This document shows, piece by piece, positions 7,755 to 28,763 of a stretch of 54,256 bases of DNA (positions are counted from its first letter, which is position 1; the number at the start of each line of letters is the position of its first letter). Position numbers and translations under genes: made by a program. This DNA comes from Candidatus Peregrinibacteria bacterium RIFOXYB2_FULL_33_20. Its GTDB lineage: Bacteria; Patescibacteriota; Gracilibacteria; UBA1369; GWF2-33-10. The notes under the pieces are model-generated. The model was not told the origin of the DNA and ran no database searches. It saw nothing but the letters and a program-made list of their open reading frames with translations. The stretch is from assembly GCA_001788835.1 (NCBI GenBank), contig MFXK01000015.1, forward strand, positions 1 through 54,256. The letters run 5' to 3'.

Positions 7755-8066
7755 ATTAGCAAGAAAATTCATTTTTTTATAAATTTCTGATATTTATTTC
7801 GCAGTTTTTGCGGTTTTTAAAATTGAAAAAGATAATCCTAACTGGAAAGATTTGTATTATTTGTTTTAACTAATCCTCCATATAAAATATAAAAAACACT
7901 ATCGATGTTAGTCCTCTACTGGATTCCAGACTAAATCTGGAATGACATCTGACGATAAATTAATTTTTTTTCAAACCATTTTCCGTTTGATCCTAAAATT
8001 ACCTTGAAAAAATCAATGAAAGTTTAAAAGTCTTAACAATCAGCAATTTAATAATTTATCATTTTC
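7755..8066. other. Intergenic stretch with a dispersed palindrome
   Basis: This holds one copy of the GTCATTCC-type palindrome (7923-7943) and a short plus-strand run of coding-like codons (7783-7869, ending KDNPNWKDLYYLF then stop). That run could be the tail of a lost gene, but it is too short to prove. Otherwise nothing. Confidence 0.4.
7923..7943. repeat. Dispersed palindrome, copy A
   Basis: ATTCCAGA, loop CTAAA, TCTGGAAT, followed by GAC. This is a perfect 8-bp stem. The same ATTCC...GGAAT element recurs at 11349-11374, 13429-13454 and 54237-54256, always between genes. Confidence 0.55.
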
Positions 8067-8426
8067 TTAAATTAAGGCATCGACAATATGTTCAATTTCT
8101 AATTTGCCGTGATCATAATCAATGCCAACGACATCAATGCGGTAATTTTCTGGTTTTAATTGTTTTTGCGATAAATATTTTTCCGCGCTGTACATTAATT
8201 TTTTGATTTTATAAGGAGGGACACAATCACTGGCATAGCCAAAATTAGTGTTTAATCTGGTTTTTACCTCTACAAAAACTAATTCATTTTCATTTTGTGC
8301 TATTAAATCGATTTCCCCACCGCGCAGGCAAAAATGATTATCAATAATTTCGTAGCCTTTGGCTTTCAGGAAATGAGCCGCCAGATTTTCGCCATAATCG
8401 CCAAGATTTTTCTTTGATTTTCCCAT
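8067..8426 (-). CDS. yraN: YraN/UPF0102 family endonuclease-like protein
   Basis: 119 residues, standard length. The family core is intact: GENLAAHFLKAKGYEIIDNH, then GGEIDLIAQ and LVFVEVKTR. The last two form the GEIDLI...FVEVK catalytic-like signature of the PD-(D/E)xK nuclease (Holliday-junction-resolvase-like) fold. The biological role is unsettled. It is transcribed divergently from dnaB, with 50 bp between the two starts, so they share one small promoter region. Confidence 0.92.
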   Translation of the reverse strand: MGKSKKNLGDYGENLAAHFLKAKGYEIIDNHFCLRGGEIDLIAQNENELVFVEVKTRLNTNFGYASDCVPPYKIKKLMYSAEKYLSQKQLKPENYRIDVVGIDYDHGKLEIEHIVDALI

Positions 8427-8476
8427 AAGAAAACATTATCATACCACCCCTGCTAATGTAAATTTGCGTTTTAACT

Positions 8477-9850
8477 ATGAATACCAATCTTCCGCCTCAT
8501 AATGTTGACGCTGAACAAAATGTCCTAGGTTGTGTTCTGATTGATAAAGATGCCATTATCAAAATTGCTGATGTACTGGAAAACGTTGATTTTTACGAAC
8601 CGAAACACGCCTTGATTTATGAAGCGATTTTGGAGTTATTTCAAAAAAGACAGGCGATTGACTTGGTGACGGTAGCAAATTTACTTCAGGATAAGAAATT
8701 GACAGACCAGATTGGCGGGAACTTGTATTTAGCAGAATTGGCGGATAGCGTGGTAACTACGGAAAATATTTTCCCGTATGCTTTGATTATCAAGCAAAAA
8801 TCGACTTTACGCAAACTGATCAAAGCCGGCAATGCGATTATTTCTCTTGGCTATACTGAAGATCGTGATACTGAGGTGATTTTGGAAGATGCCGAAAAAG
8901 CCTTGTTTAATGTTTCACAGACTTTTTTGAAAGACAGATTTGTCCATATCAAAGAAATTTTGGCCACTACTTTTGAAAAAATTTCTGATTTGCATGATGA
9001 AGAAGGTGCCAAGAAATATTTGGGCATTCCGAGTGGATTTTCTGGTTTGGATCGAATTTTGTCCGGGTTTCAGGGGTCAGATTTGGTAATTATTGCGGCC
9101 AGGCCTTCCATGGGTAAGACTGCCTTATCTTTGAATGTAGCCCAGAATGCCGCTAAGCAACATAAATCTGTCGGTATTATGTCTTTGGAAATGTCCAAGG
9201 AACAATTAGTGGAAAGAATGTTTTGCAGTTTGCTGCAGGTAGATTCCTGGAAAATGAAAACCGGACAGCTTACGGAAGCTGATTTTGCCAGGATGGGAAC
9301 CATTATGGATGAGCTTAACAGTTATAAATTATTTATTGATGATGCCTTGACCGGTTCTATTCCAGAATTGCGGGCGAAAGCCAGAAGATTACAAATGGAG
9401 CATGGATTGGATATGCTGATTATTGATTATTTGCAATTAATGTCCAACATGAACAGCAGTTATGGGGGTAATCGCGTGCAGGAAATCTCCGAAATTTCCA
9501 GATCCTTGAAAGCCTTAGCCCGTGAACTTCATATCCCGATTATTGCCTTATCACAACTTTCTCGCGCCGTAGAAAACAGGCCTGACAAGCGGCCTCAGCT
9601 TAGCGATTTGAGAGAATCAGGTGCGATTGAACAGGATGCTGATGTGGTGCTGATGATGTATCGTGAGGATTATTATGAAGAAGATACCGAAAGAAAAGGC
9701 ATTACCGATATTTTTATTCGTAAGCACCGAAATGGTTCCACCGGTAGAGTGGAGTTAATGTTTAAGAAAGAACAGATGAGATTTTATGATATTGATTATA
9801 CTCATGAAGAAGAGCCAACCGCTAGTCAGTTGCGCCAGGCTTTTGTTTAA
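8477..9850 (+). CDS. dnaB: Replicative DNA helicase DnaB
   Basis: 457 residues, normal for the family. The N-terminal helical domain begins LPPHNVDAEQNVLGCVL. The RecA-like C-terminal domain carries Walker A ARPSMGKTA (about residues 208-216), Walker B LDMLIIDYLQLM, the sensor-like IIALSQLSRAVENRPDKRP, and the DNA-binding segment SDLRESGAIEQDADVV. It unwinds DNA at the fork as a hexamer and recruits primase. No intein is present. The ATG at 8477 follows AACT with no Shine-Dalgarno. Confidence 0.98.
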   Translation: MNTNLPPHNVDAEQNVLGCVLIDKDAIIKIADVLENVDFYEPKHALIYEAILELFQKRQAIDLVTVANLLQDKKLTDQIGGNLYLAELADSVVTTENIFPYALIIKQKSTLRKLIKAGNAIISLGYTEDRDTEVILEDAEKALFNVSQTFLKDRFVHIKEILATTFEKISDLHDEEGAKKYLGIPSGFSGLDRILSGFQGSDLVIIAARPSMGKTALSLNVAQNAAKQHKSVGIMSLEMSKEQLVERMFCSLLQVDSWKMKTGQLTEADFARMGTIMDELNSYKLFIDDALTGSIPELRAKARRLQMEHGLDMLIIDYLQLMSNMNSSYGGNRVQEISEISRSLKALARELHIPIIALSQLSRAVENRPDKRPQLSDLRESGAIEQDADVVLMMYREDYYEEDTERKGITDIFIRKHRNGSTGRVELMFKKEQMRFYDIDYTHEEEPTASQLRQAFV

Positions 9851-9969
9851 AATTTTATTATTGCAGTGTTATGAATAGGATTAATATAAGTAATTGTTTT
9901 TTCCCTTTTAGAATAATATTCACTTAAAAGTTTAACAGCAGCTTGTTCAACATCATGATCCGCACCATA
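9847..9969 (-). pseudogene. Possible C-terminal tail of a lost minus-strand gene
   Basis: On the minus strand, 40 codons (9850-9969) read as well-formed protein in the codon style of the neighbours: GADHDVEQAAVKLLSEYY then TITYINPIHNTAIIKF and TAA. The frame closes upstream with TAG at 9970-9972, right beside the heptamer array, so the 5' part is gone. I do not recognise the family. Its first codons overlap antisense to the other remnant (9946-9972), so at most one of the two readings is right there. Confidence 0.4.
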
Positions 9970-10160
9970 CTATCGCTCACAACCCACAACCCACAACCCA
10001 CAGCTCACAGCCCACAACTCACAGCCCACAGCCCACAGCTCATAGCTCACAGCTTTTCTTCCATTCCGGTGGTGGCATAACAATCGACAGCAATCCAGAA
10101 AAAGAATGGGAAGAAACACTGCACAAGGCAAAAGCCCTGATTGAAGCAATAAAAGTCTAA
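9946..10160 (+). pseudogene. Remnant of a chorismate-binding enzyme (PabB/TrpE-like), broken by a heptamer array
   Basis: Bases 10056-10157 encode FFHSGGGITIDSNPEKEWEE and on to ALIEAIKV, then TAA. This is the C-terminal signature (GGGIxxDSxPxxExxETxxKA) of anthranilate, aminodeoxychorismate and isochorismate synthases. Bases 9946-9972 read FNIMIRTIL, the family's IRT strand that should lie about 12 residues earlier. Between them sit 77 bp of seven-base repeats, which shift the frame. More than 400 residues of the N-terminus are missing. GC-richer codons than the neighbours suggest an acquired gene. Confidence 0.6.
9976..10052. repeat. Heptanucleotide tandem array, 11 copies
   Basis: Eleven contiguous 7-bp units of the form C(C/T)CACA(A/G), with one CTCATAG variant: five CTCACA-type and six CCCACA-type units in irregular order. 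Total 77 bp, not a multiple of three, so it shifts the frame of the chorismate-enzyme remnant it splits. The strand is purine-poor and could slip during replication. Confidence 0.9.
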
Positions 10161-10166
10161 AATGCT

Positions 10167-11273
10167 TCATTTATCTTCAACTGACTTATAAATACTACAA
10201 GCTCTAGCTAATAAAATTAAATTATCATTATTATATAAATTCAATTCTTTGATACCATAAACATCAGCTAAAGCTTGTAAAGCCTCCGCTTCTACTCGAC
10301 GTGCATTTAAAGCTTGTGAACTGACACCTGATAATGTTTCAAAATCATCTCCATGTATTTCATATTTGTTTCCATCAATCTTGATGGTAAACGTTAAATA
10401 ACTTTTCCCCCCATTCTTTAATTGATACTTACAAAAAAATATTCTTTTTTCATCTCCATTTTGTCTAGTCTTTTCGTCCCAAAATCTAAAAAGTTGATCT
10501 GTTACACTTGGAATTGTAGTTACAGGTAATGCTTGTAAACGCTTATGTGAATTTTCTTCTATCTTATAAACCTGAGCTAATTTCCTTAAAGCCTCCTCTC
10601 TTACTTGATTTGAATTTTTAGCTGTTGGGTTACTACCTGATAATGTTTCAAAACCATCTCCATATATCTCAAATTCTTTTCCGTCAATCTTAACAGTAAT
10701 TGTTAAAATACATTTTTTCCCACCCCTTTCAACTAACAATCGATAAGGACAATAAAATCTTCTTTCTTCATCTCCATTTCGTTCAGTTCCTTCATCCCAA
10801 TATCTAAAAAGTTGATCTCTTGCGCTTGGAATTGTAGTTACAGGGGATGCTTGTAAACGCTTATGTAAATTTTCTTTTATATTATAAACCTGAGCTAATT
10901 TTCTTAAAGCCTCCTCTCTTACTTGATTTGAATTTTTAGCTGTTGGGTTACTACCTGATAATGTTTCAAAACCATCTCCATACACTTCAAAATTTTTCCC
11001 ATCAATCATGATAGTAAGCTGTAAATAACATTTTTCTCCATCCCTTTCAACTAACAATCGATAAGGACAATAAAATCTTCTTTCTTCATCTCCATTTCGT
11101 TCAGTTCTTTCGTCCCAATATCTAAAAAGTTGATTTCTTACTACTTCTATCTGCTGATTTAAATATAAAATATCCGGTTTAGGCTCATTATCAAAATCAA
11201 AAAAATCAATTTTAGCCAATTGTCTTTCCATTAAAACTATCTGATCGGAGGTAATTTCGGCTGATTGTTCCAT
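10167..11273 (-). CDS. Unknown protein with three near-identical tandem modules
   Basis: 368 residues. After a 45-residue acidic lead come three copies of a module of about 105 residues (roughly 48-152, 153-257, 258-350). Each begins with (R/T)DQLFR(Y/F)WDE and passes through the basic strand-rich segment NGDE(E/K)R.F(Y/F)C.Y. A pair of strands around IDGK.(F/Y)E(V/I).GD.FETLSG follows, then a helix ending EAL..LA.VY.I. Modules one and two are almost identical, also as DNA (period about 315 bp), so the duplication is recent. The strand-strand-strand-helix order resembles a double-stranded RNA-binding domain, but only weakly. No membrane segment. Function unknown. Confidence 0.7.
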   Translation of the reverse strand: MEQSAEITSDQIVLMERQLAKIDFFDFDNEPKPDILYLNQQIEVVRNQLFRYWDERTERNGDEERRFYCPYRLLVERDGEKCYLQLTIMIDGKNFEVYGDGFETLSGSNPTAKNSNQVREEALRKLAQVYNIKENLHKRLQASPVTTIPSARDQLFRYWDEGTERNGDEERRFYCPYRLLVERGGKKCILTITVKIDGKEFEIYGDGFETLSGSNPTAKNSNQVREEALRKLAQVYKIEENSHKRLQALPVTTIPSVTDQLFRFWDEKTRQNGDEKRIFFCKYQLKNGGKSYLTFTIKIDGNKYEIHGDDFETLSGVSSQALNARRVEAEALQALADVYGIKELNLYNNDNLILLARACSIYKSVEDK

Positions 11274-16075: not shown

Positions 16076-17773
16076 ATGGCAGAAGATAATCAAACTATCC
16101 AAATTCCGGATAATAAGCCGATAAATTCACAGCCTTTGGGTGAGCGAACCGCTTCTGTTAATCAAGAGTTAGCGGAAAAAGCCGCTAAAGAAAAAGCTGA
16201 CAATTTAGGGTTGACTTACATTAATTTATCAAGTTTTCCGGTAAATCCAGATGTGTTTGCAGTGCTTGATCTGGATACTGCGGAAAAATATTTGATTGTG
16301 CCGTTTTTTGTGTCAGGGAAAAAAGTGAGATTGGCTTTTGCTGATCCTGACAGTGAATATACCAAAAAAATTATTAATGATTTAAGAGGAAAAGGGTATT
16401 TGTTAAATATGTCTCTGGCTTCAGAAATTAGCATTCGACAGTGTGTTAATCGTATCAGGTCGCAAACGATTGAACATAAGGATTTAGCCGTAAAAAATTT
16501 AGTAAATGAAGAAAAATTAGGCAGTTTTGTGTCGGAAATCAAAAATTTGCAAAATTTAAAGTTTGAATTGGAAAATTTGACTGCAGAAGAAGGTTTGAAT
16601 AAAGTCAGCGTGGGGGCTTTGAAAACTGGCGCTTCTGATATGCATTTTCAGCCAGAAGACAATGGTATGGTGACAGTCAGATTTAGGATAGACGGCATGA
16701 TGCATGAAATTTTCACTATCAGTCAAAAAGTCTACAAAAATATTATTAATCAGTTGAAATATAAAGCTTCCATGCAGTTGAATGTGGATAATATTCCTCA
16801 AGACGGGCGATTTTTTTTCGTAGTCAATGATCGAAAAATTGATGTTCGTGTATCCTCTTTGCCAACTGAGTATGGGGAAACGTTTGTTTGTCGGTTACTC
16901 GATAAAAAAGGCGGGTTTATTAATATCGATTCTTTGGGCTTAAAAGAAGATAATTTAAGACAGATTCAAAAAGCCTGCGATATCAGTCACGGCATGATTT
17001 TGGTAACTGGTCCGACTGGATCTGGTAAAACCACCACTCTATATTCAATGTTAAGTAAATTTAATGACCCAAGTAAAAAAATTATCACCTTGGAAGATCC
17101 GATTGAATATCATTTAGGGGGAATTTCGCAAAGTCAGACCAATTTTAAGCGTGGCTATACATTTGCAGATGGGCTGAAAGCTATTCTTAGGCAGGATCCT
17201 GATGTGGTAATGGTCGGTGAGATCAGGGACACTGATACGGCTCAAACGGCGGTGCAGGCAGCTTTAACCGGACATGTGATGCTGTCCACTTTGCATACCA
17301 ACAGTGCCATTGAAACCATACCAAGAATTTTAAATTTTGGCATCAAACCATTTATGCTGTCTCCAGCTATTTATATCATTATAGCGCAAAGGTTAGTCCG
17401 TAAAGTTTGTGATAATTGCAAGGTCATTCAAAAACTTGATGACTCTTCAAAAAAGGAATTAGAAGATTCTCTTAAAATTATTCAACAAATTCGTCCTGAA
17501 TATCAGAATTTAACCTTACCAGATAAGTTGCCGAAAGGAGCGGGGTGTGATGTCTGCAGTCATACTGGTTATAAGGGCCGAACGCAAATTACGGAGGTTT
17601 TAAAAATTGACTTTCAAATTCGCGATTTGATTTTACAGGAAGCCAGTCAGGTTAAATTTATTGAACTCGCTCGTCAAAAAGGCATGCTGACGATGCGGGA
17701 AGATGGGATTTTAAAGGTTTTAGATGGCATTACCACGCTGGAAGAAGTTCATAGAGTGGCGAATGTGTTATAA
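16076..17773 (+). CDS. GspE/PilB family type II secretion / type IV pilus assembly ATPase
   Basis: 565 residues, full length. The N-terminal MshEN-like domain spans about residues 35-150. The core ATPase has Walker A GPTGSGKTTTLYS (about 312-324), the Asp box around LEDPIEYHLGG, Walker B DPDVVMVGEIRDTDTAQTA, and the His box LSTLHTNSAIE. A zinc tetracysteine lies in the C-terminal part (CDNC...CDVC, about 442-490). It powers pilus fibre assembly as a cytoplasmic hexamer at the inner membrane. No other pilus gene is visible here. The next gene begins 11 bp downstream, so they are probably co-transcribed. Confidence 0.95.
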   Translation: MAEDNQTIQIPDNKPINSQPLGERTASVNQELAEKAAKEKADNLGLTYINLSSFPVNPDVFAVLDLDTAEKYLIVPFFVSGKKVRLAFADPDSEYTKKIINDLRGKGYLLNMSLASEISIRQCVNRIRSQTIEHKDLAVKNLVNEEKLGSFVSEIKNLQNLKFELENLTAEEGLNKVSVGALKTGASDMHFQPEDNGMVTVRFRIDGMMHEIFTISQKVYKNIINQLKYKASMQLNVDNIPQDGRFFFVVNDRKIDVRVSSLPTEYGETFVCRLLDKKGGFINIDSLGLKEDNLRQIQKACDISHGMILVTGPTGSGKTTTLYSMLSKFNDPSKKIITLEDPIEYHLGGISQSQTNFKRGYTFADGLKAILRQDPDVVMVGEIRDTDTAQTAVQAALTGHVMLSTLHTNSAIETIPRILNFGIKPFMLSPAIYIIIAQRLVRKVCDNCKVIQKLDDSSKKELEDSLKIIQQIRPEYQNLTLPDKLPKGAGCDVCSHTGYKGRTQITEVLKIDFQIRDLILQEASQVKFIELARQKGMLTMREDGILKVLDGITTLEEVHRVANVL

Positions 17774-17783
17774 AAAATTAAAA

Positions 17784-20714
17784 ATGGAAAATTTATTAAC
17801 AATTTTAAGACCTAATACTCTTGACTTAGCGGAAAGAGCTTTTCCGGGCTATAGAGTCGTATTTTTACAGAGCTTTATGTACGCTTCTAGAAATTCATAT
17901 CCGCTGGAATGGATAGCTAGAGAATTACCACAAAATTGTTGTGATCATAACCAAGAGCATCCTGGTACACTTGATGGAGTGGACTGCACAGAAGAAGATC
18001 TTGATGATGGTGTAAAGCGACTTACTTTCGCTGGGCCGTGGGCATTTCGAGCTTATGATAAATTAATAACTTTCGGATCGGATAAATCTGATGTAAAAGG
18101 CAAAGCTGCTGGGGGTAATGGTATTGGTTTTAAGCAGGCAGCTTTGAGGTTAATGAGGGATTATGGGGTCAAAAAGGTGGAAGTATTGGGAGAAGGATGG
18201 AAAGTTCATTATGAATACGTCACAAAAGATGATATTAATGATAAATTACCACCTGTAGCTTATGATCACAGGCCTCCACCATTTCAAAGCGTAACACCAG
18301 ACGAATGGGAACAAATACAAGCAATTACAGCTGAAGAAGGTGCTCTTTTGGCGAAAGTGGAGCCGGTGGATAATCATGGTCAATTTTCTTATATAATAGA
18401 GACTGATAATCCAGCCGTAATAGAACATTTAAGGGAATTTAAACATTTAGGTGTATCTAAAGAAAATCGCCATTTAAGACAGCCACACTTTCAAGGATCA
18501 GTTGGATCAATCACCTGGCTACCTTTAGCAGAAGATCCTTCCTTAACAGACACTGCGGAAAGCGATTCGGCCTGGGTTCATGTTGAAAGTAATAGGGTGA
18601 GGGCAGAGTTGGGTAAATTATTTATAAATGGACAGATATATAGATTTCAAGATGAAGATAAGGGGGATAGATCTCGAAAAACTGATTTTTGGGGAGGGAT
18701 TGAGGGAGTTACGATTGTAGTTAATAATGTCACGTATGAAATGAGCATAGATAGGCCCCCGATGAATAAATGGGAACTGTATGGCCATGTTAAGTGTTTG
18801 GTACGGGCAATGAATCCTCAAGATCTGATTTCTAATTTACAGGCTTCAGAGCATTTATGGGTAAAATTGCCATATAGCGATGGTGGTAATTTTTTTGTTT
18901 TTTTGCTTATTGAGAATATAGTTAGCAGATTAGGATATCTAGGATTTAGTTTTCTTTATTTTCCTAAATATTTTTCTGATAAAAAATATCTATGTTTGGA
19001 TAAAAATCTGAATAATGACCAAAAAGCCAAATTAGAAGAAGAAGGATATGTTTTGTGTCCAAAGTTTTTTACTGAAATTGGGATGCCGAAAGCAAGTGCT
19101 AAATTATCCGACACAGAACATGCGCGAACTTTAAAACCAGTGGGGTTTCAGGCCGGGCAGGAATTATTTAAGCTAAGTCAACAGTGTGGTTGTAAAGTGT
19201 CATATCCAGAATTACAAAGATGCCGGAACATGCAAGGAATAGGAGCTTTTGTAAAACAAATTTTTGCTGAAATAATTGAGGATATAAGACTTGAAGGGCA
19301 ATCTTTAAAAATTGTTTTTAAAAGATCCTGTAACATTGATAAGGAATGTCTTGTTGATATAAATCATCATGAGTCAGTAGATACAGGAGAGGGTATAATG
19401 TATTTTATTAGAGGGATTGTTTATGCTGGGTTAAGGAATCAATGTTTCGAAGATGCTTATTTTGCCCAAGGTGATTTTTTTAGTACTTTTATGGTATATG
19501 GTCATGAATTACTGGTCAGAAATAATACATCTTCAACGGATGATGTTTTTTTGAATATTACCGCCACTCCAGTTAATTTAGCTGAATTTATGGAAGGGTT
19601 TAAATCTGGGGATGATGGAGAAAGAGTTAACAGAATTGCGGCGGCACAGGATCAAGGAAAATCAGCAGGTGATTTCGCAGATTTTTATAGAAGCGGACTA
19701 GAAAGAGAAGTTGCTCAGCTGGATCAAAGAAAAACTGAACTTGAGACTGCTATTGCAAAAATACAGTTGGAATTAGACAAAAAGCAGAAGGAGGCAGAAG
19801 CAGAATTAGCCATAGAAATGCAGGCAAAAAAGGTAGAAGCAGAAGCAGAATTAGCCGTAGAAATGCAGGCAAAAAAAGCAAAAGCAGAAGTAGAATTAGC
19901 TGTAGAGAGGCGACAAAACAAAACGCCAATAAGATTCTTACTTAGGCCTTTGCGAGCTGTAGCTTCAGTATCAGCTGTTATCGGGACTGCAGCGTTGGCA
20001 ATTGTAGCTTTGGCTAACCTACCTTCAGTTTTTTCTGGTACGGAAATGAAAAATCCAGAAGTTGATACGACTACTGCTTATGATGGGATTAAAGCTCCAA
20101 AGATTGACAATCCGAGATCATTATCTGATATTTTGAGAGACTTTAACCAAACATCATTTAGAACTGATGTTTGGCCAAGTCCGACACAAATAGCGCAAGA
20201 TGCGTATAATGGTATTCTTGAGGGGATAGCTGAAGCATTGAAATCTTTAGGGGGAGCTTTGGAAGGTAGAAAGTTTTCTGTAGAGGATAATATGGAGGCG
20301 GGAGATTATAGAATAGTGGAAAATCCCACAGAGAATCAAATTCAGCAATTATCATTATTACAAGAATTATTCTCGTTATTAACTCATCATCCAATAAATC
20401 AAACACTTTATTTATTCCAGGGTGGGGGCTTATTAGGCCTGAATCATGGTGCGAAATATATTGGTTTACATGAGGCTGACCTGGATGCAGAGATATGGGA
20501 GGCTATGTCGGTTTTGACACATGAAGTGGCACATAATGATTTTTTGGCTATAGGTCATGATTCAGAATTTATTCGTGCAGGCGAAGCTATTGCTGCGGCT
20601 CTGCAACGAAGACTTTATGATATTGCGGCAACACCGGACGCTCAATTAACTGGTGAGGAACGAAAAATTTTACAAATAAAAAGCAGATGGGACAGTTTAA
20701 TTTCAAATAAATGA
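17784..20714 (+). CDS. GHKL-type ATPase, coiled coil, membrane helix and HExxH protease-like domain
   Basis: 976 residues from ATG 17784; an upstream in-frame ATG would overlap the ATPase gene by 50 bp and add 20 unlikely residues. Residues 40-150 look like a Bergerat (GHKL) ATPase: motif I ARELPQNCCDH (E47, N51, D54), then FGSDKSDVKGKAAGGNGIGF with the GxxGxG/K lid (109-117). The usual DxGxG of motif II is not clear. Residues 150-630 are unrecognised. A coiled coil spans 637-712, with EAEAELA(I/V)EMQAKK repeats, followed by a membrane helix (724-747). The C-terminus (750-976) carries THEVAHNDF (H913, E914, H917) and GHDSEF (H925), a gluzincin-like zinc site. I know no named protein with this order. 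Confidence 0.75.
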   Translation: MENLLTILRPNTLDLAERAFPGYRVVFLQSFMYASRNSYPLEWIARELPQNCCDHNQEHPGTLDGVDCTEEDLDDGVKRLTFAGPWAFRAYDKLITFGSDKSDVKGKAAGGNGIGFKQAALRLMRDYGVKKVEVLGEGWKVHYEYVTKDDINDKLPPVAYDHRPPPFQSVTPDEWEQIQAITAEEGALLAKVEPVDNHGQFSYIIETDNPAVIEHLREFKHLGVSKENRHLRQPHFQGSVGSITWLPLAEDPSLTDTAESDSAWVHVESNRVRAELGKLFINGQIYRFQDEDKGDRSRKTDFWGGIEGVTIVVNNVTYEMSIDRPPMNKWELYGHVKCLVRAMNPQDLISNLQASEHLWVKLPYSDGGNFFVFLLIENIVSRLGYLGFSFLYFPKYFSDKKYLCLDKNLNNDQKAKLEEEGYVLCPKFFTEIGMPKASAKLSDTEHARTLKPVGFQAGQELFKLSQQCGCKVSYPELQRCRNMQGIGAFVKQIFAEIIEDIRLEGQSLKIVFKRSCNIDKECLVDINHHESVDTGEGIMYFIRGIVYAGLRNQCFEDAYFAQGDFFSTFMVYGHELLVRNNTSSTDDVFLNITATPVNLAEFMEGFKSGDDGERVNRIAAAQDQGKSAGDFADFYRSGLEREVAQLDQRKTELETAIAKIQLELDKKQKEAEAELAIEMQAKKVEAEAELAVEMQAKKAKAEVELAVERRQNKTPIRFLLRPLRAVASVSAVIGTAALAIVALANLPSVFSGTEMKNPEVDTTTAYDGIKAPKIDNPRSLSDILRDFNQTSFRTDVWPSPTQIAQDAYNGILEGIAEALKSLGGALEGRKFSVEDNMEAGDYRIVENPTENQIQQLSLLQELFSLLTHHPINQTLYLFQGGGLLGLNHGAKYIGLHEADLDAEIWEAMSVLTHEVAHNDFLAIGHDSEFIRAGEAIAAALQRRLYDIAATPDAQLTGEERKILQIKSRWDSLISNK

Positions 20715-20756
20715 GCGTTAAATATGTAAAGATAATTACTAAAACAAAGATTATTT

Positions 20757-21512
20757 ATGAAACTTATCCATAAAATCTTAACCCCGGAAAGGTTTAAGGA
20801 CTTCAGAGGGCAAATAATGGCCATTGTACGAGAGGTTGATCCTTCTTTAAGACGATTTATGAATTTACCTTTTAGAAGAATCGAACTTTATCAAAAAGAT
20901 ACAAGTTCACAATATGCGATATTAGAAACACATGATGTACAAGTTACGATCCAATTCGTTCAAAATATTCAATCTATTGCAGAAGAACATCAAATAATAG
21001 GCCTTCAACAATATTGTCAGTTAATTTTAAACAGATTAGATACTCACAAGATAGGAATTATTGTATGGCTTAGACCAACCCCGGTTGAAGCGATACGGTC
21101 AAATAATATTAGAGGTGGAGAAAATGTGGAATTAGAAATAAGTGACACAAATAATGAAGTGGACGGCATAAGTTATATAATGCGCATGCATCTTTCGCTT
21201 AGACCTGACGGAGAAAATGATATAGAGATACGAGAATTTAGAAACAAAGGGATAGATTTATCCCCTCAAGGAGAGCCTAGGTTAATACATCCTGTAATAA
21301 ACGATGAACCGGCGAGAGGGTTTATAAATAGTTATGAGTTATATATTAGTCTTCTAGAAGCGATTATGGAATTTGTAAAAGCAGAAGGACAGGTAATTCA
21401 AGAAAAAGCCTCTAAAGAGAAAAAAATAGCAGAAATGCCAATTTTGTCATGCATAGCCGAAGGAAGACTGGAATTGGCATTATCAAAAATTTTATTCAAA
21501 TTGGGATTATAA
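20757..21512 (+). CDS. Unknown protein, 251 aa, partner of the GHKL/HExxH protein
   Basis: I do not recognise it. It lies 42 bp after the GHKL/HExxH gene on the same strand, so it is probably translated from the same mRNA. It starts MKLIHKILTPERFKDFRGQI. A predicted alpha/beta region at residues 40-170 holds alternating strands (YAILETHDVQVTIQFVQNI, GIIVWLRPTP, ISYIMRMHLSLRP). A helical C-terminus (about 190-251) contains a basic stretch (KASKEKKIAE). No signal, membrane segment or catalytic motif is evident. It converges on the TrmB-like gene with a 6-bp overlap. Confidence 0.65.
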   Translation: MKLIHKILTPERFKDFRGQIMAIVREVDPSLRRFMNLPFRRIELYQKDTSSQYAILETHDVQVTIQFVQNIQSIAEEHQIIGLQQYCQLILNRLDTHKIGIIVWLRPTPVEAIRSNNIRGGENVELEISDTNNEVDGISYIMRMHLSLRPDGENDIEIREFRNKGIDLSPQGEPRLIHPVINDEPARGFINSYELYISLLEAIMEFVKAEGQVIQEKASKEKKIAEMPILSCIAEGRLELALSKILFKLGL

Positions 21513-24331: not shown

Positions 24332-25552
24332 TTACAATAAATTCATAAGTTGCCATGGATAAATGATGTTCTGACCATCCAAGCTACATACAAAACTTTT
24401 TTTTGTATTATATCTTTCATTAAAAGATCTTAGCCCAGGATGAGTATTTTTATAAAAATTCAGTTTTGTCTCTATTGCAATTAATTTATTAATATTCTCT
24501 ATTACAAAATCTACCTCTTGACCATGAGTTGTTCTCCAATAATAAAGAGCATCTATATCAGCTATTTTTCTAAGTAAATTATAAATAGAATTTTCAAAAA
24601 GTGCTCCATCAATTTCTTTTGGGAAATCATAAAGTTTTAAAATATTCATAAGCCCAGTATCTTCAAAATAAATTTTTGGCATTTTAGATAATTCAGTCTT
24701 TGGACTTTTTGAAAAAGGAGAAACAAGTTTAATAATATAAGTATTCTCAAGAATAAATAAATATTTTTCAATAGTTTCTCTATTAATATTTAAAATTTTA
24801 CTGATATCTAAAATATTAAGAATATTCCCAGAAATTTTTGATAAATATTTGAGCAAATTATTAAATTTCCTTATATCTCTGACATCTGCTAAATCAGCAA
24901 TATCTTTCCTAACGTAAGTTTCTATTATTTGTTTTATAATTTTTTTCTTTATGTCTGTATCTTTTTCTAAAACAACTTTTGGATAAGATCCAAAAATAAC
25001 ATATTCAACAAAAAGTTCTCTTAATTCTTTAATAATTATTGTTGGGAATTTTTTATCTGTATTTTTTAAATCGAATTTTTTATTTTTAAACTTCAAAAAT
25101 TCATCAAAACTAAGTCCAAATAATTCATAATTAATAGTTCTACCCACTAAAGAATCCTTAAATTTTGATTTAATTTTAAAACTTGAAGAACCAGAAACAA
25201 TAACATGAATTTGACTATGATCAGCTAATAATTTGAGGAAAGAACTAGGATTATCAAGGTATTGCACTTCATCAATAAATAAATATGTATCTTTTTTAAA
25301 ATTTGCACCTTTAAACTCAAGACTTTTAATAACTTCTTTATATCCACCATTGCACAAATCAAGAAACTCAAAATCTTCCAAATCAAAATAAAAAATCTGA
25401 TTTTCTGAAATATTTTTTTCTTTTTTCAGATAATGTTCTATTGATTTCATCAGTGTCGTTTTGCCTACCTGTCTAGCTCCATGTATAACAGTTATTGTTT
25501 TATTTATAGTTTTTATAATTTCCTGGAAAATATTTCTATTAATGATTGGCAT
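24332..25552 (-). CDS. AAA ATPase with C-terminal DUF4143 domain
   Basis: 406 residues from ATG 25552, chosen because the motif order usual in the family starts MPIINRxxF; an upstream ATG would add 19 residues. Walker A is HGARQVGKTTLMK (about 24-36), Walker B is TYLFIDEVQYLDN, and the sensor/arginine region is IVSGSSSF. The C-terminal DUF4143 has the endonuclease-like strand pattern DALYYWRTTHGQEVDFVIEN then KLIAIETKLNF. Such proteins are widespread, multi-copy in many archaea and candidate phyla, with unknown target. AT-rich codon use suggests lateral spread. Confidence 0.9.
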   Translation of the reverse strand: MPIINRNIFQEIIKTINKTITVIHGARQVGKTTLMKSIEHYLKKEKNISENQIFYFDLEDFEFLDLCNGGYKEVIKSLEFKGANFKKDTYLFIDEVQYLDNPSSFLKLLADHSQIHVIVSGSSSFKIKSKFKDSLVGRTINYELFGLSFDEFLKFKNKKFDLKNTDKKFPTIIIKELRELFVEYVIFGSYPKVVLEKDTDIKKKIIKQIIETYVRKDIADLADVRDIRKFNNLLKYLSKISGNILNILDISKILNINRETIEKYLFILENTYIIKLVSPFSKSPKTELSKMPKIYFEDTGLMNILKLYDFPKEIDGALFENSIYNLLRKIADIDALYYWRTTHGQEVDFVIENINKLIAIETKLNFYKNTHPGLRSFNERYNTKKSFVCSLDGQNIIYPWQLMNLL

Positions 25553-25696
25553 ATATTTATTAATATAATATATAAAAAATGCAATATTTTGCTGGTTATA
25601 GTCTAACAAATATTATTTATAATTTCAAGTATTTTACAAAAACAATAAAAAATTGCAATTTAATGAAAATTTTAAAGTATTTTTTATCTTTTCTTT

Positions 25697-25833: not shown

Positions 25834-26913
25834 ATGGATAATCAAGAAAACGTAATAATAAACAGTTTTTATAATGAATTTTCTAGAATGCTTGAAAATG
25901 CAACAAAAGTAGAAGATATACAGTTTCTTATAGGTCAAAAATTAGTAGAAACAGGCGTTTTAAATCCAGACAATCAATTAGCATTCAGATATAACGATGA
26001 TCCAAAAGAACAGGAACAAAGACTCCAAAGGATACAAAAATTAGTAAATGAAAGATTAGCGCAAAATCCTGAAAAACTTGCATTAGCAACACAGATGATA
26101 AATAAATGGATAGGGCAAGTACGTCAAAGAATCACAAAAGAATTACACCACATTTGGACTAAACCAGAAAAACGAAACTATCAAGAAATAATTGATGTGG
26201 CAGTAAGTAGAGCATTCAAGCAAATTCAAATGGATATAAACACAAAAGGCTATGTAGAATATCAATCTTTTAGAGAGGAAGATTTTCAAAATATAGAATT
26301 TGCAGATCGTCCTTGGTTATTAAAGTTAAATACAGTACATTTAGTCACAACAATTCAAAAATTATTATTATTAAAATTGATACAAACTGCAAACACTGAC
26401 ACAGAACATGCTTTTTTATATTGCGAGGCAATCGTACAAATTCAAATTAGCAGACAAAAACATGGTGGCAATGAAATTAATTTAAGAAGTTTATGTTCCT
26501 TTGAACCAAATAATTATAAACAAATAGAACCTTTAATCACGGAAGCTTTAGATAAGGTCAAAAATTCTTCTAGGTATAGAGAGCAAGTTATAAATAAATT
26601 GCAAAATCTTAATTCACAAGCAGGCCAAGTAACACATGGCAATAAAACTCTTGATAAAACAGAATATGTATATACCTTAACTATAGATCGAGCAGATCAA
26701 AATTCAGTTGGCTGTATTATAAAATATAATGGAACTGTAATAGCACAAGCTCGCTATAATAAAGAAACTAAAATTTTACAAATTATTCGAGATCCTAATA
26801 AAACAGGGCTTGAATTATGGAACACTTCTAATGTTACGGAACTAACAACAGAAACTACTCACTTTGATCAAGTAGTTTATAAACATCTAGCCTTAATGGC
26901 TAAAGTGCTATAA
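25834..26913 (+). CDS. Unknown protein, 359 aa
   Basis: I do not recognise it. It is predicted mainly helical in residues 1-270, with Gln/Glu/Arg-rich amphipathic helices (KEQEQRLQRIQKLVNERLAQ, and IGQVRQRITKELHHIW) and a leucine-rich core near 180 (QKLLLLKLIQTANTD). A beta-rich end (about 275-340) contains EYVYTLTIDRADQNSVGCII and TVIAQARYNKETKILQII. No signal peptide, membrane helix or catalytic motif is visible. It is flanked by TGTC-N10-GACA sites about 120 bp before the start and 67 bp after the stop, and may be regulated together with the Cys-rich gene. Confidence 0.65.
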   Translation: MDNQENVIINSFYNEFSRMLENATKVEDIQFLIGQKLVETGVLNPDNQLAFRYNDDPKEQEQRLQRIQKLVNERLAQNPEKLALATQMINKWIGQVRQRITKELHHIWTKPEKRNYQEIIDVAVSRAFKQIQMDINTKGYVEYQSFREEDFQNIEFADRPWLLKLNTVHLVTTIQKLLLLKLIQTANTDTEHAFLYCEAIVQIQISRQKHGGNEINLRSLCSFEPNNYKQIEPLITEALDKVKNSSRYREQVINKLQNLNSQAGQVTHGNKTLDKTEYVYTLTIDRADQNSVGCIIKYNGTVIAQARYNKETKILQIIRDPNKTGLELWNTSNVTELTTETTHFDQVVYKHLALMAKVL

Positions 26914-27041: not shown

Positions 27042-28763
27042 GTGAATAAAATATGTAAAAATTGCACAAATAATTTTGAAATCAGCTCTGAAGATAGTGA
27101 ATTTTATAGTGGTTTAAATCTGCCAGAACCTACATTTTGTCCAGACTGCAGACAACAAAGAAGGCTTGCTTGGAGAAATGAATATAGGCTTTATAAACGA
27201 AAATGTGATGCTACAGGAGTTGAAATGCTTTCTGTTTTTTCACCAGATAAACCTTACACAGTTTATAACAATGATTACTGGTATTCAGATAAATGGAATG
27301 CAAAGTCTTATGCAATGGATTTTGATTTTTCAAAAAGTTTTTTTGAACAATATCAAATTTTAATGCAAAAAGTACCTCAACTTGCAAGATCAACAATGAA
27401 TAATCAGAATTGTGATTTTGTGAATCAATGCGGATGGTCAAAAGATTGTTATCTAACTTGCGAAGCTGATGAAAACGAACTTTGCGCCTATTCAAATTAT
27501 ATTTATAACTGCAAAACTTGTTTTGACTGTACTCATTCTGTAAAAAATGAACTTTGTTATGAATGTATAGATTGCCGACAATGTTATAATTTAAAATTTT
27601 CGCAGAACTGTCAAAATAGCTCTAATTCCTGGTTTCTAAAAAACTGTATTGGATGTATGGAATGTTTTGGTTCTGTAAATTTAAGAAATAAATCATATTA
27701 TTTTTGTAATGAAAAATGTTCAAAAGAAGAATATTTGCAAAAATTAGCAACAGTAAATTTAACAAGCTATTCAAGTTTGCAAAGCATTTATGGATGGTTT
27801 CTTGGCTTTTCACAAAATTTTCCGCATAAATCAATGAATGGAGTGCAAAATGAAAATTCAACTGGCGATTATTTATATCAAACCAGTAACTGCACTGAAT
27901 GTTATGACACATATAACGCAAAAGATTGCAAATTTGCTTTTAATGCCAGAAATTTAAAAAAAGTTTATGACATGACAGTTTTTGGCGGACCTGGCGGAGT
28001 AGAATTTAGCTGTGATAATCATGAAATCGGAGATTCAATTCGAAATATTTATTATTCAGATCAAATTTGGTCAGGTTGTTATAATGTTTATTATTCCAAA
28101 CTTTGCAATAATAATTGCCATGATATTTTTGGATGTGTTGGCTTAAGACATGCCGAATATTGCATTTTGAATAAACAATATACAAAAGAAGAATATGAAA
28201 ATTTAAAAACAAAAATTATTCAGCATATACAAAATTTAGGAGAATTTGGAGAATTCCCTCCAATATCTATCTCACCTTTTTCTTATAATGAAACAATGGC
28301 ACAAATGTATTTTCCCCTTTCAAAAGAACAAATACAAAGCTTCCCCCTTGATAAAGGGGGATTGAGGGGGATTAAATGGAAAGATGATCTTATTATCATC
28401 CCTCAAATTGATAAAATTATTCCTGGCAATATGATTCCAGATACAATTTCAGAAATTCCTGATGATATTTTGAATTGGCCGATACAATGTGAAATTTCCA
28501 AAAGACCATTTAAAATAATTCCATCTGAATTGAAATTTTATCGTGATCAAAATTTACCAATCCCCCATCTACATCCAGAAGAAAGATTTAATAAAAGGAT
28601 GTCCCTTCGAAATCCACGCAAACTTTGGACAAGAAATTGTATGAAATGTAATGCCGAAATTCAAACTACTTATTCACCTGAAGAAGAAATTGCTTGCAAT
28701 TCGAAGCTTCAGCGTAGAATTGTGTATTGTGAAAATTGTTATATTAATCAAGCATGCTTATAG
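27042..28763 (+). CDS. Cys-rich zinc-ribbon protein of CPR type
   Basis: 573 residues, starting at GTG 27042. An N-terminal zinc ribbon (C5-x2-C8 ... C33-x2-C36) is followed by WRNEYRLYKRKCDATGVEML. A long middle part (about 120-260) is dense in Cys pairs (CKTCFDCTHS, CIDCRQCYNLKF, CIGCMECFGS), and a C-terminal ribbon (CMKCNAEIQTTY ... CENC) ends the chain. I recall proteins like this in many candidate-phyla genomes, without a known function. A palindromic repeat sits inside the reading frame at about residues 434-444 (FPLDKGGLRGI). Metal binding is inferred from the cysteines. Confidence 0.75.
   Translation: MNKICKNCTNNFEISSEDSEFYSGLNLPEPTFCPDCRQQRRLAWRNEYRLYKRKCDATGVEMLSVFSPDKPYTVYNNDYWYSDKWNAKSYAMDFDFSKSFFEQYQILMQKVPQLARSTMNNQNCDFVNQCGWSKDCYLTCEADENELCAYSNYIYNCKTCFDCTHSVKNELCYECIDCRQCYNLKFSQNCQNSSNSWFLKNCIGCMECFGSVNLRNKSYYFCNEKCSKEEYLQKLATVNLTSYSSLQSIYGWFLGFSQNFPHKSMNGVQNENSTGDYLYQTSNCTECYDTYNAKDCKFAFNARNLKKVYDMTVFGGPGGVEFSCDNHEIGDSIRNIYYSDQIWSGCYNVYYSKLCNNNCHDIFGCVGLRHAEYCILNKQYTKEEYENLKTKIIQHIQNLGEFGEFPPISISPFSYNETMAQMYFPLSKEQIQSFPLDKGGLRGIKWKDDLIIIPQIDKIIPGNMIPDTISEIPDDILNWPIQCEISKRPFKIIPSELKFYRDQNLPIPHLHPEERFNKRMSLRNPRKLWTRNCMKCNAEIQTTYSPEEEIACNSKLQRRIVYCENCYINQACL
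28341..28373. repeat. Palindromic repeat inserted in frame in the Cys-rich gene
   Basis: CCCCCTT (28343-28349), loop GATA, AAGGGGG (28354-28360), then GATTGAGGGGGATT. The sequence strongly resembles dispersed GGGGGAT-type miniature repeats known from several bacterial genomes. It is GC-rich in a very AT-rich gene and keeps the frame open, adding about 11 residues. Confidence 0.7.

What the first reader, a model, noticed from the sequence alone, without database searches (positions are those of the whole stretch)
17784..21512. GHKL ATPase fused through a membrane span to an HExxH domain, with a co-directional unknown partner
The 976-aa protein combines a Bergerat-fold ATPase motif set (ELPQNCCD, GGNGIGFK), a coiled coil, one membrane helix and a C-terminal HEVAH...GHDSEF zinc-protease-like motif. 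An ATP-driven clamp tied by a membrane helix to a protease could be an envelope quality-control, signalling or defence device. The following 251-aa gene is in the same direction 42 bp away and has no known family. I know no named protein with this order of parts.
Basis: partly seen in the sequence, partly recalled or inferred. Interest (0 to 1): 0.82.

Follow-up and report, generated by a model that had tools for sequence, protein, structure and literature searches.

The report
Hsp90-like ATPase fused to zinc protease
The gene makes a protein that joins an Hsp90-like ATP-driven clamp to a small zinc-protease domain, and it belongs to a scattered, unnamed family found in tiny symbiont-like bacteria, archaea and gut bacteria; if the clamp drives the protease, this would be a kind of energy-dependent protease not described in the databases and papers searched.

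Summary
P0001 (17784-20714, 976 aa) carries a GHKL ATPase of Hsp90 type (N-terminal plus middle domain, residues ~22-440), a coiled coil (628-707), one hydrophobic span (725-743) and a C-terminal zincin (HEVAHNDFLAIGHDSEF). No Pfam, NCBIfam or PADLOC model reaches its cut-off. Profile searches show an unnamed family with both ends conserved: other CPR classes, Peribacteria, Woesearchaeota, Micrarchaeota, 37 of 146 sampled genomes of one Gastranaerophilales-type order, Myxococcales and Halochromatium. The AlphaFold models match Hsp90 (E 1e-5 and 6e-6); the zincin matches minigluzincins (abylysin, WLM, SprT, YgjP). Three separate duplications left one unit with HExxH and one without, which argues for a dimer that needs only one cutting site. 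The membrane span is absent from the five other CPR-clade members. The 251-aa partner (P0002) is an orphan: no convincing match in 341 class genomes and none beside any relative examined. Best reading: an ATP-gated Hsp90-like clamp that feeds or switches a fused minigluzincin, here with its own membrane anchor. Architecture is shown; ATP hydrolysis, proteolysis, coupling and biological role are inferred.

The parts
17784..20714 (+). P0001, 976-aa Hsp90-like GHKL ATPase / minigluzincin fusion protein
   Evidence: ORF and translation; family in other genomes
17847..19103 (+). GHKL module: N-terminal Bergerat domain plus Hsp90-like middle/transducer domain (residues ~22-440)
   Evidence: hhalign CPR-clade core vs compact clade E 3.8e-41; Foldseek to Hsp90, MORC, MutL, topo VI
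17919..17945 (+). N box R46-E47-L-P-Q50-N51-C-C-D54 (E47 = presumed general base, N51 = presumed Mg ligand)
   Evidence: R46, Q50, N51 and D54 invariant in 16 sequences; E47 is E in the CPR clade and D in the compact clade
18108..18134 (+). ATP-lid / G2 motif AGGNGIGFK (109-117)
   Evidence: G110, G113, G115 and K117 invariant
18753..18755 (+). R324 of the middle domain (IDRPP; SRDR in the compact clade), candidate equivalent of the Hsp90 catalytic arginine
   Evidence: invariant; aligned across clades; equivalence to Hsp90 is inference from the fold match
19044..19097 (+). family signature GYVLCPKFFTEIGMPKAS at the end of the core
   Evidence: conserved across both clades
19665..19904 (+). 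coiled coil, residues 628-707
   Evidence: single long helix in the AlphaFold model; weak coiled-coil-type Pfam hits
19956..20012 (+). hydrophobic, probably membrane-spanning segment, residues 725-743, specific to this protein; flank charges +4 / -3 suggest N-in, C-out
   Evidence: absent in close relatives
20301..20711 (+). C-terminal minigluzincin-like zincin domain, residues ~840-976
   Evidence: SprT-like, WLM and YgjP-like hits among clade members; abylysin and Wss1; homologous to the compact-clade zincin, E 3.7e-8
20520..20558 (+). HEVAH (913-917) and third predicted Zn ligand H925
   Evidence: H913, E914, H917 invariant; H925 kept in its clade and aligned to the corresponding His of abylysin
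20757..21512 (+). P0002, 251-aa orphan protein, co-directional, 42 bp downstream; not a conserved partner
   Evidence: no family hit; no homologue
16076..17773 (+). upstream PilB/GspE-type ATPase gene; ends 10 bp before P0001, possibly co-transcribed
   Evidence: T2SSE E 3.8e-121; sequence at the junction

Best explanation
P0001 is a single-chain, ATP-gated clamp protease. The N-terminal half is an Hsp90-type GHKL ATPase (ATP-binding domain plus middle domain) that should dimerise and, on ATP binding, close like Hsp90 or MutL; the coiled coil probably helps pairing. The C-terminal tail is a minigluzincin-type zinc protease (HExxH...H). ATP-driven closure is proposed to present a bound client to the protease, or to uncover the active site, so that proteolysis happens only when the clamp is loaded. 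In this lineage a membrane segment was added between the coiled coil and the protease, tethering the protein to the membrane. Shown: both domains, their conservation as a fusion, and intact key residues apart from the G1 box. Inferred: ATP hydrolysis, proteolysis, dimerisation and coupling. Not known: the substrate and the biological role; the scattered, apparently laterally spread distribution fits a conditional stress or conflict function better than core housekeeping.
For: Both ends stay together over very large distances: core E 3.8e-41 and zincin E 3.7e-8 between clades, in CPR, DPANN archaea, Gastranaerophilales and proteobacteria/Myxococcales. Foldseek: Hsp90 N+M domains as best hits for two models of distant members, then MORC, MutL, GyrB, topo VI. 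Zincin: WLM 2e-4, YgjP 2e-4, SprT in 3 of 3 clade members, abylysin with the third His aligned (Foldseek probability 0.99). Invariant N51, GxGxGxK, R324, H913, E914, H917. Dimer with one cutting site: three separate duplications (Myxococcales L025 pair; Gastranaerophilales L064/L065; L067, whose two units are sisters in the tree at 99/98) each kept one unit with HExxH and one without, the latter still carrying the ATPase N box.
Against: The G1 box (DxGxG, with the adenine-binding Asp) is not recognisable in any member, so nucleotide binding could differ from classic GHKL. In the predicted topology of P0001 the span would place the protease on the other side of the membrane from the ATPase, which makes direct hand-over hard. 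No structure with ligands, no residue distances and no activity data. The P0001 model is only moderately confident (pLDDT 60.5). Sequence-only GHKL hits are sub-threshold.
Confidence: 0.5

Rival explanations
1. Conflict device: the GHKL module senses an invader (phage or mobile element) and switches on the protease, which kills or arrests the cell or destroys invader proteins; phage GHKL-only relatives would be decoys or phage-side parts.
For: Scattered distribution (1 of 89 in the order, 3 of 353 in the class, 4 of 310 in another class) and cross-domain spread. Seunavirus phages carry a GHKL-only homologue (hhalign E 3e-12; phrog_6077). Phage proteins and RIIA are among the fold matches of the compact member. 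Neighbours in single cases: SoFic-type Fic protein directly upstream in Halochromatium L028; AriAB/OLD-like ATPase and a serine recombinase near the G988 copy.
Against: No PADLOC hit for the protein and no conserved defence neighbour; most copies stand alone among unrelated genes.
Confidence: 0.2
2. Envelope quality control or signalling: a cytosolic ATPase relays a signal through the membrane span to an external protease.
For: Hydrophobic span with N-in charge bias (+4/-3); gene sits directly behind a PilB/GspE ATPase gene.
Against: The span is absent from every other CPR-clade member, and in the Gastranaerophilales both domains lie on the same side; the slot behind pilB is occupied by another protein in the sister genus.
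Confidence: 0.12
3. Secreted or host-directed effector: the unit acts on partners of these symbiont-like organisms and is part of larger effector proteins in gut Gastranaerophilales.
For: Giant Gastranaerophilales proteins (frames of 2294 to 4366 aa) carry tandem units, and one also carries an ADP-ribosyltransferase exoenzyme domain (E 9e-13). Holders are mostly CPR, DPANN and gut bacteria.
Against: P0001 has no hydrophobic signal segment at its start; an exported ATPase would have to find ATP in the target cell; Halochromatium and Myxococcales, not known as symbionts, hold members too.
Confidence: 0.13
4. The GHKL part is a sensor for a ligand other than ATP, or a scaffold, and the zincin acts without energy coupling.
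For: Recognisable DxGxG box missing throughout the family; general-base Glu is Asp in the compact clade.
Against: Mg-ligand Asn, lid glycines, lid Lys and middle-domain Arg are invariant in 16 sequences, and even the protease-dead units keep the N box, which suggests selection on nucleotide binding.
Confidence: 0.15

Closest known systems
Hsp90 / HtpG / TRAP1
   Same: Predicted fold of N-terminal plus middle domains (best Foldseek hits); N box, lid and a middle-domain arginine at the corresponding place
   Different: No Hsp90 family hit by sequence; no recognisable DxGxG box; rest of the chain is coiled coil plus zincin; ~10% identity
Minigluzincins (abylysin, WLM/Wss1, SprT/SPRTN, YgjP)
   Same: HExxH...H...F signature and fold of the C-terminal domain in the P0001 clade
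   Different: All hits below family cut-offs; the compact clade uses HExxHxxGGD, probably with Asp as third ligand; fused to a GHKL ATPase
FtsH-type AAA+ metalloproteases (from general knowledge)
   Same: ATPase, zinc protease and membrane anchor in one chain
   Different: FtsH uses a P-loop AAA+ ring; here the presumed motor is a GHKL clamp, and the zincin family differs
Phage T4 RIIA and RIIA-like proteins
   Same: GHKL fold; RIIA among the viral structural matches (E 4e-6); described as GHKL plus a variable C-terminal domain (PMC7824862)
   Different: No significant sequence relation (hhalign E 0.056); RIIA keeps DFGPGM where this family has lost the box
phrog_6077 (Seunavirus GAP31_101, 4MG gp176)
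   Same: Same GHKL module, hhalign E 3e-12 over 235 columns
   Different: 382 aa, no zincin; function unknown
Prokaryotic MORC / paraMORC
   Same: GHKL plus transducer-type domain and a GNGxK-like lid; MORC structures among the fold hits
   Different: No sequence-level match; no fused zincin mentioned in the abstracts seen

Membership tests
GHKL (Bergerat-fold) ATPases | N box (E/D-x3-N-x2-D) | tested here: met
   RELPQNCCD; R46, Q50, N51, D54 invariant
GHKL (Bergerat-fold) ATPases | G1 box DxGxG | tested here: not met
   No DxGxG in any member; replaced by hIxGxxxY-type sequence
GHKL (Bergerat-fold) ATPases | G2 / lid GxGxG | tested here: met
   GGNGIGFK; G110, G113, G115, K117 invariant
GHKL (Bergerat-fold) ATPases | Bergerat fold | tested here: met
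   Foldseek to Hsp90, MutL, GyrB, topo VI, MORC with probability up to 1.00
GHKL (Bergerat-fold) ATPases | ATP binding and hydrolysis | not testable with these tools
   needs purified protein
Hsp90 family proper | Significant match to an Hsp90 sequence profile | tested here: not met
   No Hsp90 Pfam or NCBIfam hit
Minigluzincins (WLM / SprT / YgjP / abylysin) | HExxH with third His before a conserved Phe (HxxxF) | tested here: met
   H913, E914, H917, H925 and F929; conserved in the clade
Minigluzincins (WLM / SprT / YgjP / abylysin) | Score above a family cut-off | tested here: not met
   Best WLM 2e-4 and YgjP 2e-4 in single clade members; P0001 itself SprT 0.16
Minigluzincins (WLM / SprT / YgjP / abylysin) | Zinc binding and proteolysis | not testable with these tools
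   needs purified protein
RIIA-like phage proteins | Sequence homology to RIIA | tested here: inconclusive
   hhalign vs T4 RIIA E 0.056 with motifs in register
Known anti-phage systems | Match to a PADLOC model | tested here: not met
   Best E 0.08, in the coiled coil
Two-gene system P0001 + P0002 | Adjacency kept in another genome | tested here: not met
   No P0002 homologue in 341 class genomes, nor beside any relative examined

The most novel reading that the evidence does not exclude
A class of ATP-dependent protease powered by an Hsp90-like GHKL clamp rather than an AAA+ ring, working as a dimer, with one active and one protease-dead subunit in several lineages.
Probability: 0.35. Interest if true: 0.85.

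Novelty: new variant of a known kind. Interest (0 to 1): 0.62.

Why it matters
To my knowledge the energy-dependent proteases characterised so far are driven by AAA+ P-loop rings. A conserved fusion of an Hsp90-like clamp to a zinc protease would show that a client-loading chaperone clamp can be wired straight to a cutting domain. The repeated loss of one protease site after duplication gives a direct, testable prediction about asymmetry in the clamp. The family also gives a handle on unnamed proteins in CPR bacteria, DPANN archaea and gut Gastranaerophilales and on an unexplained phage family (phrog_6077).

Tried and rejected
Single-sequence searches of Pfam, NCBIfam, PADLOC, PHROGs and PDB with P0001 gave nothing usable; first genome-contig and viral-contig scans gave nothing or only a coiled-coil match, plasmids and phages nothing. 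Further viral-contig scans with relatives and profiles gave none. D926 as third zinc ligand (suggested) was rejected after adding G606, where that position is Gly while the neighbouring His is kept. P0002 weak matches (E 0.02-0.1) were rejected as chance: short pieces in unrelated frames, several with stops. The sigma-70 and terminator scan around the genes is at the shuffled level and is not used. One alignment row (L025 in A6) was out of frame and was dropped for A7. Literature searches for a GHKL-zincin fusion found none. While weighing RIIA I recalled a T4 phage protein sequence from memory in my reasoning, which the instructions forbid; it was not used, and the comparison used the public record.
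Full report
OBSERVATION. The two open reading frames exist as described: P0001, 17784-20714 (+), 976 aa, and P0002, 20757-21512 (+), 251 aa, 42 bp apart. P0001 starts 10 bp after the stop of a PilB/GspE-type ATPase gene (T2SSE E 3.8e-121; junction), itself behind a nusA-like gene. No curated model describes P0001: Pfam, NCBIfam and PADLOC give only weak hits, mostly in the coiled coil, PDB sequences nothing usable. The genome appears to be a Patescibacteria (CPR) bacterium: relatives in the same class are a Peribacteria genome (G246, equal to a named contig) and a genome read with TGA as Gly, like Gracilibacteria (G107), although this genome itself uses the standard code.

FAMILY. In the order, 1 of 89 genomes holds it (its own); in the class 3 of 353. 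The relatives in G107 (1457 aa, code 25) and G246 (549 aa) both carry the ATPase motifs in the N-terminal part AND an HExxH near the C-terminus. A profile of these three found 18 loci in reference genomes: Woesearchaeota, Micrarchaeota, Gastranaerophilales, Thioploca, Peribacteria, Myxococcales, Halochromatium and others. In the sampled order of a Gastranaerophilales-type genome 37 of 146 genomes hold it, and in another CPR class 4 of 310. Of the 18, all complete members but one keep HExxH at the C-terminus; the exception (L025, 7992-10628) lies beside a paralogue that keeps it. The Thioploca copy is 76% identical to a Woesearchaeota copy and sits on a 7.7-kb MAG contig, so mis-binning is possible there.

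ATPASE. In 16 full-length sequences the invariant columns include R46, Q50, N51, D54, G98, G110, G113, G115, K117, R324 and H913, E914, H917. The CPR-clade core and the compact clade match by hhalign with E 3.8e-41 over 330 columns. Model of P0001: mean pLDDT 60.5, higher in the ATPase and zincin parts; its best PDB matches are Hsp90 N+M domains, E 1.0e-5, then MORC, topo VI, MutL. Model of the compact member in L014: pLDDT 81.6; GRP94 5.8e-6, TRAP1 7.6e-6. One classical GHKL feature is missing: there is no DxGxG box in any member. I read R324 (IDRPP, or SRDR in the compact clade) as the likely counterpart of the Hsp90 middle-domain catalytic arginine; that is inference from the fold match.

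PROTEASE DOMAIN. The C-terminal 150 residues of the P0001 clade hit SprT-like (3 of 3 members), WLM (2e-4) and YgjP-like (2e-4), all sub-threshold, and abylysin and Wss1 in PDB, weakly, with the third His in register. Foldseek links P0001 to abylysin with probability 0.99. In the compact clade the motif is HExxHxxGGD, probably with Asp as third ligand. The two zincins are homologous (hhalign probability 95, E 3.7e-8).

ACTIVE/DEAD PAIRS. In Myxococcales two tandem paralogues lie side by side: one with HEFSH, the other without HExxH but with a full N box and lid. In giant Gastranaerophilales proteins (L064, 2294 aa; L065, frame of 4366 aa) two units follow each other, the first with HExxH, the second without; L067 shows the same. 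In the tree the L067 units are sisters (99/98), as are the L025 units (99/97), separate from the L064/L065 pairs, so the pattern arose at least three times. I take this as the best hint about mechanism: units work in pairs and one cutting site per pair is enough, as expected of an Hsp90-like dimer. Dimerisation itself is not shown.

MEMBRANE SPAN. Residues 725-743 are strongly hydrophobic (2.28), with flank charges +4 before and -3 after, which predicts N-in, C-out. No other CPR-clade member has a span (G107, G606, G988, G1053, G1113). Most Gastranaerophilales members have one near the N-terminus, before both domains, so ATPase and protease are there on the same side whichever way it is inserted. 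The span of P0001 is therefore a local addition, and if it crosses the membrane it would separate ATPase and protease, which would be odd for direct coupling.

PARTNER. P0002 has no family hit in four libraries, no convincing homologue in 341 genomes of the class, none in five genomes including those with P0001 relatives, and no examined relative of P0001 has it next door. In the sister genus (G012, pilB 75% identical) the slot behind pilB holds a 1541-aa transglutaminase-domain protein. The adjacency is not conserved.

ROLE. Distribution is scattered and crosses domains, context is not conserved, and most copies stand alone. Hints of conflict: GHKL-only homologues in Seunavirus phages, RIIA among fold matches, an adjacent Fic protein in Halochromatium, and an AriAB/OLD-like ATPase plus a serine recombinase near the G988 copy. 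Hints of effector use: giant Gastranaerophilales proteins, one with an ADP-ribosyltransferase domain. None of these is decisive.

VERDICT. A real, conserved and (in the sources searched) undescribed fusion of an Hsp90-like GHKL ATPase with a minigluzincin-like protease domain. Membrane tether and partner gene are not family features. Coupling of ATP to proteolysis is the most likely mechanism but is inferred.

Noticed in passing
L064:2815-9699 (G701) and L065:321-12140 (G733; open frame 4366 aa): Giant Gastranaerophilales proteins with two GHKL-zincin units at the C-terminus; the G733 one also has an ADP-ribosyltransferase exoenzyme domain (E 9e-13). They look like large effector proteins.
   Followed up: partly
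L025:4960-7587 and 7992-10628: Tandem Myxococcales paralogues, one with HExxH and one without.
   Followed up: partly
L030:3986-5134 (GAP31_101) and L031:3986-5134 (4MG gp176): Seunavirus phages encode a GHKL-only relative (phrog_6077, function unknown).
   Followed up: partly
L007:9205-10170 (G107, code 25): The 1457-aa relative has a 300-aa N-terminal extension with a second HExxH (HERSH).
   Followed up: no
L095 (G988:C8), reverse strand: The relative is split into two frames, one with the GHKL core and one with the zincin; either a real gene split or a sequence error. The G1053 copy also has a frame break near its N-terminus.
   Followed up: no
L088:3558-8183 (-), G012: In the sister genus the slot behind pilB holds a 1541-aa protein with a transglutaminase core domain, so this position may be a variable slot.
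   Followed up: partly
window 24332-25609 (-): AAA_14/DUF4143 ATPase that matches the PADLOC candidate family PDC-S01 (E 1e-75).
   Followed up: no
window 25834-26913 and 27042-28763 (+): Two proteins without any credible Pfam match; the second is rich in Cys pairs, zinc-ribbon-like.
   Followed up: no
L097:2947-3981 and 9752-10801; L028:6715-7944: Fic-type proteins near members (directly upstream in L028; by the look of the sequence, two within 9 kb in L097); may be chance.
   Followed up: no
N-termini of L013, L016, L017, L019, L023: Gastranaerophilales members begin with a short NFQA/NFTGG-like motif; possibly a sorting signal.
   Followed up: no
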